From Chthonomonas calidirosea T49 (GTDB lineage: Bacteria; Armatimonadota; Chthonomonadetes; Chthonomonadales; Chthonomonadaceae): a stretch of DNA of 64,000 nucleotides. Made by a program: the position numbers and the translations under genes. Within the stretch, counting starts at the first letter, position 1. The number at the start of each line of letters is the position of its first letter. Shown piece after piece: positions 48,221 to 51,447 of the stretch. The stretch lies in NCBI RefSeq assembly GCF_000427095.1, contig NC_021487.1, positions 2,377,325 through 2,441,324 of the forward strand, read 5' to 3'. The notes beneath the pieces were generated by a model, which was given only the letters and a program-made list of their open reading frames with translations, searched no databases and was not told the DNA's origin.

Positions 48221-48249
48221 TTGACAGCGTTGCTGCTTTCCTGTAAAAT
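48221..48249 (+). promoter_or_regulatory. strong sigma-70-type promoter
   Basis: TTGACA (48221-48226) and TAAAAT (48244-48249) are separated by 17 nt, preceded by an A-run. It drives the ECF-sigma-like gene and probably the whole cluster to 51447; the leader is about 105 nt. Confidence 0.88.
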
Positions 48250-48359
48250 GTCCCTATAACATGTCCATAGAGTGATGCGTTGTACGCCGTAGGCGTCTTT
48301 CCGACCGAGGGGGGAACGACTGCGGGAGTCATTCTCTCCTAGTGTGCAGGAGAAGAGAG

Positions 48360-48972
48360 ATGGCAAGAAGGGAGCGTTCTTGGACGGTTGAGGAGGAGAT
48401 CCTGCTTCAAGCATGTAGCAAGGAGGCGATTGGCTACTGCGTGCGGTGTGGCCTCTGCTTGGACGACGCACAAGATTGCGCCGCTAGCTTTATCGAGAAG
48501 CTGTTGCGCCGCCGGCACCTGCTGTTGCACCTGCAGGAGGAGCGCTATCGGCATCGTGCCCTCCGACGCTTTTTCCTAAATTGGCACAGAGATCAGCAGA
48601 AGAGGCTGGTGGAGGAGCAGATAGCGTGCGCCGAGTCTATGGTGGTCGAAGACGATAGCGCCGCCCATGCCCTGCTTTTGGAGCTTTGGCAGCGCCTGGA
48701 AGGGGGGCTGGCCGTGCTTACCGCTTCGCAGCGCCATCTGATTTCGAAAACATCTCATCGAGGGCTACTCTTTTGAGGAGATCGTGCAGAGCGCCGAAGG
48801 GCACAAGTGCGGCATTGGCAGCAGCCCCGATGCCGTGCGGAAAGCCTATCAGCGGGCGCTGCAGCAGCTGAGACGTGTGTTGGAACGCCAAGGCTTAAGT
48901 AAAGCGGAGGCCTTCTCCTACATATCTCTCCGTCACCAAGTACGGGGGGGGGAAGCGACTGGGATAGCTTGA
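48360..48972 (+). pseudogene. ECF-type sigma factor, interrupted by a one-base frameshift
   Basis: The first frame (48360-48776) encodes a region-2-like segment (DDAQDCAASFIEKLL) and runs to LTASQRHLIS, then goes off-family. Removing one A from the AAAA run at 48747-48750 restores HLIEGYSFEEIVQS and then SPDAVRKAYQRALQQLRRVLE, a standard sigma region 4 helix-turn-helix, ending at 48972. The restored protein would be about 203 residues. AGGAG lies 7 nt before ATG 48360. As written the gene makes a sigma lacking region 4. It may be a true pseudogene, a frameshifted gene with recoding, or a homopolymer sequencing error. Confidence 0.85.
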
Positions 48973-49013: not shown

Positions 49014-49102
49014 GAATGGAAGCGCGCAAACAGGCACTTCCAACCCATTCAGGAAATGGCATCGTGTCAGCGGTGCCAACGCGGTAAAGGAGGTTTCCAC
49101 TT

Positions 49103-49405
49103 ATGGAACGTACGTTTGCAAAGTACTTTCTGTTCGGGCTGCTGCTAGGCATCCAAGCGATCGTGCTCGCCAATGGTGGCGCTTAATTACCACCTGGAGC
49201 CATTCAGTGCTGCCAGGCAGCAGGTGTTGACTGCACTGCCTGCCATAATGCGAATTGCTGTATTGTCGGTTGCACAGGAAGTGGTTCGCCATTCTGTAGT
49301 AAGGCCTTCTGTGCTTGGCAATGCAATTCAGGGACATATCCACCTCTCTTTCCTCCGCCTACACCAACTCCGCCTCCGAACCCCACTCCTGGGCCAAGCT
49401 CTTAA
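49103..49405 (+). pseudogene. secreted cysteine-rich, proline-tailed mini-protein with an internal TAA
   Basis: A strong GGAGG box 9 nt before ATG 49103 starts a 27-codon signal peptide (FAKYFLFGLLLGIQAIVLA, then NGGA), followed by an in-frame TAA at 49184. The same frame continues without a stop for 72 codons: a domain with ten cysteines (CC, DCTAC, NCC, GC, FC, FC, QC) between residues 8 and 46, then a Pro-rich tail (PPLFPPPTPTPPPNPTPGPS) and TAA at 49403. Signal, Cys domain and tail together read as one secreted disulfide-rich protein; I know no named family. A single base change such as CAA to TAA would explain the stop. Confidence 0.75.
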
Positions 49406-49415
49406 GGGAGTAATG

Positions 49416-49458
49416 TTGGCACATTCCTACTCCTCTTTTGGAGATAGGAATGTGCCAA
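49416..49458. repeat. 18-bp hairpin between the Cys-rich gene and the next gene
   Basis: TTGGCACATTCCTA (49416-49429) pairs perfectly with TAGGAATGTGCCAA (49445-49458), extended inside by CTCC/GGAG. It is followed by AAAGTGTAAC, not a T-run, so it looks like an mRNA-stabilising or processing element rather than a simple terminator. Confidence 0.75.
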
Positions 49459-49491
49459 AAGTGTAACAAAAGAATGTGAGGAATGACTTCA

Positions 49492-50082
49492 ATGAAAGAG
49501 AACAAACTATTATGGATAGTAGCCCTGGTCTCAGGGTTTTGCTGTGCTCTGGTCATTGCTTATGTGGTATGGCACAAACATCAAGAGGATAACGACCCTT
49601 ACGTGAGAGCCGCTCGAGCTGCTCATGAGGATGTGGCTACTTTCAAACGTGAGATGAACTTGCTAGGCAAAGTCTTTGCGACACACCAATTGAGCCCGCA
49701 GGACTGGAGTGATCTCGAACGCTATTGCTATTCCAAAAACCCCAATACGCGAGTGGAGGTCGTTAGTGTATTGGATTATGCCTACATTCCTCCGGAGCGC
49801 AAGGCGGAGGCATTGCGGATGGTGCGTCAGCTCTATAACCAACTTCCTTCCACGGTCCCAGATTTCACAACCGACCCACAAGGCGCTACAGAGGCGTTTC
49901 ATGGGTCAGCTGCGCTGTTGCCCCTCTTTGCAGTTGACCTGTACAAGCTGGGAGCTCCCGAATGGAAAACCGCGGCGCTCAACGCATTGAAAATCTGTCC
50001 GCCGAGCATGTTGCCTTTTGAAATCCGCTCTTTCAAGAATAGAGGGCTTTGGTCTCAACTCCACTGGCAAGGAGAACAGTGA
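49492..50082 (+). CDS. membrane-anchored protein of unknown function
   Basis: A protein of about 196 residues with one N-terminal transmembrane helix (LLWIVALVSGFCCALVIAYVVW) and a helical extracytoplasmic domain (FKREMNLLGKVFATHQLSPQDWSDLERY; RKAEALRMVRQLYNQLP). HEAT-like helix pairs are possible. I do not recognise a family. ATG 49492 is preceded by GAGGA about 9 nt upstream; ATG 49483 is too close to that box. It ends 1 nt before the next gene, so the two are translationally coupled. Confidence 0.78.
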   Translation: MKENKLLWIVALVSGFCCALVIAYVVWHKHQEDNDPYVRAARAAHEDVATFKREMNLLGKVFATHQLSPQDWSDLERYCYSKNPNTRVEVVSVLDYAYIPPERKAEALRMVRQLYNQLPSTVPDFTTDPQGATEAFHGSAALLPLFAVDLYKLGAPEWKTAALNALKICPPSMLPFEIRSFKNRGLWSQLHWQGEQ

Positions 50083-50083
50083 A

Positions 50084-50776
50084 ATGAAGCCAATGCAGAA
50101 GAGAGCGAGGCGCGCGTTCACGTTAGTAGAGCTACTGGTGGTTATCGCCATCCTAGCGGTTCTTGCGGCCGTCATCTATCCGGTCTATTCGGCGGCAAGA
50201 CAGCGGGCTTACGTGGCCACCTGCCTTGCTAACCTCAGCCAAATTGGCAAAGCCACCGCCATCTAGGCGGCGGATTGGGATAGCCATCTGCCTCTTGCGC
50301 TCAGCTGTGAGCACTACGCCCCTAACGGGCAATCGGCAAACCCCACCAACAACGAGGCGCTGGATGGTTTGGTGAAACAGCTCCCCTCCATTAAGACGTT
50401 GCTGAAGAGCTATGGGGTTGTGGATGCACAGTGGCACTGCCCTGCAGACCATATTGATGCGATCTTGCAGGCCGAAGGCGGCCATGCTCCGACGTTTTAT
50501 CAGGATAGGGGCTCAAGCTATGAGTACGACGATAAGGATGCATTAGAGGGTCAGACGCTTTCGAGCTTTGCTGCGCCGGCGAGCCAACCGCTATTTTGGG
50601 ATCGTGAGCCGTTTCATAACCAGACGCATCTGCCTCCAGGCCCCGACCCATCGGCACGCGCTGGCGTGTTATATGCGGACTCGCATGTAAAGTGCGTACT
50701 GTGGGATGAGCTTTTAAAGCAGCAGAAAAATCCAATAGTGAAGGGGAGCGGGTCGTCGGAAAGCGGAGGAAGATAG
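50084..50776 (+). pseudogene. DUF1559-type pseudopilin with an in-frame TAG
   Basis: AAGGAG 8 nt before ATG 50084 starts a pseudopilin with [27 protein letters not shown] and CLANLSQIGKATAI, then TAG at 50264-50266, codon 61. The same frame resumes with AADWDSHLPLALS and runs to 50776 with all expected features (WHCPADHIDAI; ADSHVKCVLWDELL). In paralogues the position of the TAG is an almost invariant Tyr (e.g. MYAQDYD, LYVQDYD), so TAC or TAT to TAG is the likely change. The ending DSHVK replaces the usual DGHxK. Without the stop the protein would be 230 residues. Confidence 0.85.
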
Positions 50777-50865: not shown

Positions 50866-51447
50866 ATGCAGAAGCGAGATAAGATATTGCTAAGTATCGG
50901 CGCTTTAGAGTGCCTGCTGGTGTTGGTCTGGCTGCATTTCAAGGCACAAACGGCGTTTCCGCCGCCCAAGCCTCTTCCGGTTTCAGCGACCGATGTCTTC
51001 GATCCAAAAGCTCCAGTACTGGGCAATCCCAGGGCGCCCTTCACGCTGGTGGAGTTCGGCGACTATGAGTGTCCCGCCTGTCGCTATATGTATGCTCAAG
51101 TAGAGCGGCTCTGTCGCAGCCATGCGGATAGACTGCGGTTCCAGTTTCGCCAGTTTCCGCTGACGGAGATTCACCCTTTGGCCTATCGGGCTGCCCTTGT
51201 GGCCGAGACCGCACGTCTTCAAGGTCGCTTTTGGCAGGTACACGCTCTGCTCTATCAACAGCCTCTCGAGCAGACGCTGGCCAAACTTTCGCAGAAGATA
51301 GACCCCAGGGCTAAAAAGCTTTTGGCCGAGGATATCGCAGCGACCAATCGTCTTAAACTAAACCACACTCCCACGTTTCTGCTCTGCTTGCCAGACGGCC
51401 GTGTGCTCAGCCTCACCGTGCCCCAACAGGCCGAAACCTACCTCTAA
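50866..51447 (+). CDS. DsbA-like membrane-anchored thiol:disulfide oxidoreductase
   Basis: A 193-residue protein: an N-terminal anchor (ILLSIGALECLLVLVWL), then a DsbA/thioredoxin fold with the redox site CPAC (residues 69-72) in VEFGDYECPACRYMYAQVE, the helical insertion (EIHPLAYRAALVAETARLQGRFW), and the cis-proline loop LNHTPTFLL. It would oxidise or isomerise disulfides of exported proteins. A GAGG box precedes ATG 50866. It lies in the same strand and cluster as the ten-cysteine mini-protein, its likely client. The last 4 nt overlap the convergent glycosyltransferase gene. Confidence 0.9.
   Translation: MQKRDKILLSIGALECLLVLVWLHFKAQTAFPPPKPLPVSATDVFDPKAPVLGNPRAPFTLVEFGDYECPACRYMYAQVERLCRSHADRLRFQFRQFPLTEIHPLAYRAALVAETARLQGRFWQVHALLYQQPLEQTLAKLSQKIDPRAKKLLAEDIAATNRLKLNHTPTFLLCLPDGRVLSLTVPQQAETYL

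What the first reader, a model, noticed from the sequence alone, without database searches (positions are those of the whole stretch)
49103..49405. In-frame TAA exactly between signal peptide and cysteine-rich mature domain
The stop falls after codon 27, right at the end of the signal peptide, and the mature domain continues in the same frame for 72 codons without another stop. A single C to T change (CAA to TAA) is the simplest reading, but its position would also let the cell make a bare signal peptide by default and the full toxin- or metal-binding-like product only on readthrough.
Basis: partly seen in the sequence, partly recalled or inferred. Interest (0 to 1): 0.75.

Follow-up and report, generated by a model that had tools for sequence, protein, structure and literature searches.

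The report
Broken gene for secreted cysteine-rich protein
A small gene for an exported, cysteine-rich protein carries a premature stop codon in a soil bacterium, next to two other genes that are also broken, so this is most likely an ordinary decaying gene and not a readthrough switch.

Summary
An ATG at 49103 with a perfect Shine-Dalgarno site opens a 27-codon signal-peptide-like frame that ends at TAA 49184-49186. The same frame then stays open for 72 codons (10 Cys, 15 Pro) to TAA 49403, just before a stable hairpin (49416-49458). The downstream part has gene-like period-3 structure, but its codon usage is atypical for this genome.

The neighbours matter most. A sigma-70-like gene 350 bp upstream is frameshifted near 48750. 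A type IV pilin-like gene 1 kb downstream has an in-frame TAG (50264) where all 29 homologues read tyrosine. The screen found no other gene lesion in the 64-kb window. All 46 tRNAs were typed and none reads a stop codon, and UAAU is the strongest bacterial stop context.

Programmed readthrough is not supported.

The parts
48221..48249 (+). sigma-70-type promoter-like site TTGACA-17-TAAAAT (11/12)
   Evidence: only one site in 2 kb, about the number expected by chance, but near-consensus
48357..48971 (+). sigma-70-like gene with a frameshift near 48750 (N-terminal part in one frame, region-4-like part in another)
   Evidence: the frame model switches at 48749/48750; homologues in relatives align across the junction
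49088..49096 (+). Shine-Dalgarno AAAGGAGGT
   Evidence: read
49103..49183 (+). 27-codon signal-peptide-like N-terminus
   Evidence: cleavage site judged by eye
49184..49186 (+). in-frame TAA (context UAAU)
49187..49405 (+). 72 open codons (10 Cys, Pro-rich tail) and final TAA; no in-frame ATG/GTG/TTG of its own
49416..49458 (+). unique 43-nt hairpin just after the final stop, likely 3' end of the mRNA (no U-tract)
   Evidence: -30.4 kcal/mol, z=-5.7; not repeated in the genome
49483..50082 (+). intact orphan ORF, 199 aa, possible N-terminal membrane segment
50084..50776 (+). type IV pilin-like gene interrupted by in-frame TAG at 50264-50266, at a Tyr column

Best explanation
This is a lineage-restricted gene for a small Sec-exported, disulfide-rich protein with a Pro-rich tail, recently inactivated by a nonsense mutation just after the signal peptide. 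The gene still has its ribosome-binding site and 3' hairpin, so it is probably transcribed. Ribosomes would make only a 27-residue signal peptide, expected to be degraded, and the Cys-rich part would not be made at any useful level. It lies in a short cluster (sigma-like gene, this gene, orphan 199-aa gene, pilin-like gene) in which three of four genes are broken. Shown: the stop, the open frame, the neighbouring lesions, the absence of suppressor tRNAs. Inferred: export, disulfides, loss of function and recency (each broken gene has a single lesion and otherwise intact frames).
For: Frame and stop. Gene-like period-3 structure downstream. Hairpin right after the final stop. No in-frame ATG/GTG/TTG after the TAA. 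Sigma-like gene frameshifted. Pilin-like gene has TAG where 29 of 29 homologues have Tyr. No other frameshift or same-frame interruption recognised in the 64-kb window; three lesions within 1.5 kb of 64 kb has a chance of about 0.002 if they fell at random. No stop-reading tRNA among 46.
Against: No orthologue shows a sense codon at this place. Codon usage of the Cys part is unlike the genome's. The protein has no relatives, so its reality rests on intrinsic features. The lesion screen was by codon model and inspection, not by homology for every gene.
Confidence: 0.74

Rival explanations
1. The 27-aa hydrophobic peptide is the whole gene (a small membrane peptide) and the Cys-rich open frame behind it is a chance ORF in its 3' UTR.
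For: Good SD and start; Cys part has off-genome codon usage and GC3 0.40; an apparently chance ORF in the window reaches 9 Cys in 60.
Against: Period-3 signal P=0.005 and CC phasing P=0.0002 in the Cys frame; final stop abuts the hairpin; 0 of 40,000 simulated segments match openness, Cys and Pro together.
Confidence: 0.13
2. The coding frame after the stop is the +1 frame (ATG 49173 to TAA 49466, 97 aa), and the Cys frame is its shadow.
For: Codon score +2.3 against -16.2 for the Cys frame.
Against: It runs through the whole hairpin, has no SD by eye, overlaps the signal-peptide frame, and its score is well below that of real genes (mean 11.4, sd 4.8).
Confidence: 0.05
3. The TAA is a sequencing error.
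For: If this is T49, its genome is 454 Titanium plus Sanger at 20x (PMC4959169 Table 1). The sigma frameshift lies at a run of four A and could be a 454 indel.
Against: Substitution errors at 20x are unlikely (own knowledge); an indel error cannot explain an in-frame stop with the same frame open on both sides; the pilin TAG would need a second such error 1 kb away.
Confidence: 0.05
4. Programmed readthrough: the bare signal peptide is the default and the full exported protein is made under special conditions.
For: One stop only, close to the domain boundary, frame open afterwards.
Against: UAAU context is the strongest stop (PMC5289835), no suppressor tRNA, no unusual RNA structure after the stop, neighbouring genes broken, no conservation to show selection.
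Confidence: 0.03

Closest known systems
Bacterial pseudogene by a single nonsense mutation
   Same: One in-frame stop, otherwise intact frame and signals, neighbouring genes also disrupted.
   Different: The intact ancestor is not seen; the gene is an orphan.
Small Sec-exported disulfide-rich proteins (no specific family)
   Same: Signal-peptide-like N-terminus, 10 Cys with CC and CxxC spacing, Pro-rich tail.
   Different: No match in Pfam, NCBIfam, PHROGs or PDB; AlphaFold model uninformative (pLDDT 61).
Stop-codon readthrough genes of bacteria
   Same: In-frame stop followed by a long open frame.
   Different: UAAU instead of a leaky stop, no suppressor tRNA, no stimulatory structure, no conservation.

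Membership tests
Nonsense pseudogene | In-frame stop with the same frame open on both sides | tested here: met
Nonsense pseudogene | Downstream part is (or was) coding | tested here: met
   period-3 P=0.005, CC phase P=0.0002, with the caveat of atypical codon usage
Nonsense pseudogene | Intact orthologue with a sense codon at the stop | tested here: inconclusive
   no homologue found anywhere searched; other C. calidirosea strains are not held
Nonsense pseudogene | Relaxed constraint in the neighbourhood | tested here: met
   sigma-like frameshift and pilin TAG within 1.5 kb
Programmed stop-codon readthrough | Leaky stop context | tested here: not met
   UAA followed by U; UAAU strongest per PMC5289835
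Programmed stop-codon readthrough | Suppressor or stop-decoding tRNA | tested here: not met
   46 tRNAs, none with a stop-reading anticodon
Programmed stop-codon readthrough | Stimulatory RNA structure downstream | tested here: not met
   fold z-scores 0.11 and -0.71
Programmed stop-codon readthrough | Stop and downstream frame conserved together across species | not testable with these tools
   no orthologues found
Known secreted Cys-rich family | Profile match above cut-off | tested here: not met
   PDB best E=0.016

The most novel reading that the evidence does not exclude
The three interruptions (frameshift in the sigma-like gene, TAA after the signal peptide, TAG in the pilin-like gene) are not decay but a locally recoded or switchable cluster, with the secreted Cys-rich protein made only when termination is relaxed.
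Probability: 0.02. Interest if true: 0.7.

Novelty: new member of a known kind. Interest (0 to 1): 0.15.

Why it matters
If the reading is right, this is ordinary gene decay, and it warns against treating a well-placed stop as a switch without looking at the neighbours. The cluster could serve as a small example of local gene loss in a genome reported to be highly conserved between strains (PMC4959169).

Tried and rejected
Searched for homologues of the Cys-rich part in 40 relatives, 291 genomes of the phylum, GTDB contigs, IMG/VR and plasmids. The best weak hits (E about 1e-3) were read and are unrelated or off-frame sequences. Rfam found no RNA element in the window. AlphaFold of the 72-residue part, unmodified and without an alignment, was too poor to use. 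Considered the 3' hairpin as a repeat element: it is unique in the genome. Considered a genetic-code change: no stop-reading tRNA, and ordinary genes use TAA, TAG and TGA as stops.

Full report
Source. The window lies in a single-contig genome of 3,437,861 bases, the size given for Chthonomonas calidirosea T49 (454 Titanium plus Sanger, 20x) in PMC4959169. TKA4.10 has the same length because it was assembled on T49 as template. The identification rests on length, the match of 46 tRNAs, and family composition; it is an inference.

Observation. The sequence is as described: Shine-Dalgarno AAAGGAGGT, ATG 49103, a hydrophobic signal-peptide-like stretch ending VLANGGA, TAA at 49184-49186, then 72 open codons with 10 cysteines and a Pro-rich tail to TAA 49403-49405. 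Eleven bases further on there is a strong, unique hairpin (49416-49458; -30.4 kcal/mol, z=-5.7). There is no in-frame ATG, GTG or TTG after the first TAA, so the Cys-rich part cannot easily start by itself.

Is the downstream frame real? For: period-3 power 2.38, the same as intact neighbouring genes and reached by 0.5% of shuffles; CC dinucleotides in codon phase (P=0.0002) with varied third bases; the highest Cys density of 930 open stretches in the window; stop next to the hairpin. Against: codon usage is unlike the genome (total score -16.2, where 72-codon pieces of real genes average 11.4 with sd 4.8; synonymous score -8.8; GC3 0.40). Part of that comes from the Cys/Pro composition, but not all. 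It could indicate foreign or young origin, or, less likely, a chance ORF. I put about 80% on a real former gene.

Relatives. None was found: relatives, whole phylum (weak hits inspected), GTDB contigs, viral contigs, plasmids, Pfam, NCBIfam, PHROGs, PDB. The adjacent 199-aa ORF is also an orphan.

Neighbours. The gene 350 bp upstream is sigma-70-like but changes frame near 48750. Both halves score as coding in different frames, the frame model switches there, and homologues in relatives align across the junction. The pilin-like gene at 50084 has an N-methylation motif and continues in the same frame past TAG 50264 to its C-terminal DSHVKCVLWDELL. All 29 homologues that could be aligned, including one paralogue in the same genome, have Tyr at that stop. 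Of about 50 family members in this genome, the window copy is the only one shown with an internal stop (not all rows were listed). A codon-model scan of the 64-kb window, with inspection of frame junctions, gave no other convincing interrupted gene. Three lesions in 1.5 kb of 64 kb would occur by chance with probability about 0.002 (3r^2-2r^3, r=1.52/64), so the cluster is probably decaying locally. The sigma frameshift is at a run of four A and could also be a 454 error; the two stops are not explained by such indel errors.

Readthrough. UAA is the least-read-through stop and UAAU the strongest signal in bacteria according to PMC5289835. All 46 tRNA genes were found and typed; none has a stop-reading anticodon. 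The RNA after the stop has no unusual structure. Nothing supports a programmed event.

Conclusion. Most likely a recently inactivated gene for a lineage-restricted secreted Cys-rich protein, in a cluster where two other genes are broken. What is not shown: an intact orthologue, expression, export or disulfide bonding, and any function of the original protein.

Noticed in passing
50084-50776 (+), TAG at 50264-50266: Type IV pilin-like gene with an in-frame TAG at a column that is Tyr in 29 of 29 homologues; the frame is otherwise intact to its C-terminus.
   Followed up: yes
48357-48971 (+), junction near 48750: Sigma-70-like gene split by a frameshift at a CGAAAACAT sequence; either decay or a 454 homopolymer error.
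   Followed up: partly
49483-50082 (+): Intact 199-aa orphan ORF, immediately upstream of the broken pilin-like gene; no homologue in 40 relatives apart from one weak hit with stops inside.
   Followed up: partly
48221-48340 (+): Near-consensus promoter (TTGACA-17-TAAAAT) followed by a leader of about 100 nt before the broken sigma-like gene; no Rfam match.
   Followed up: partly
50866-51447 (+): DsbA/thioredoxin-like gene (Thioredoxin_4, E=2.5e-16) 1.5 kb downstream of the Cys-rich frame; a link to disulfide formation is possible but untested.
   Followed up: no
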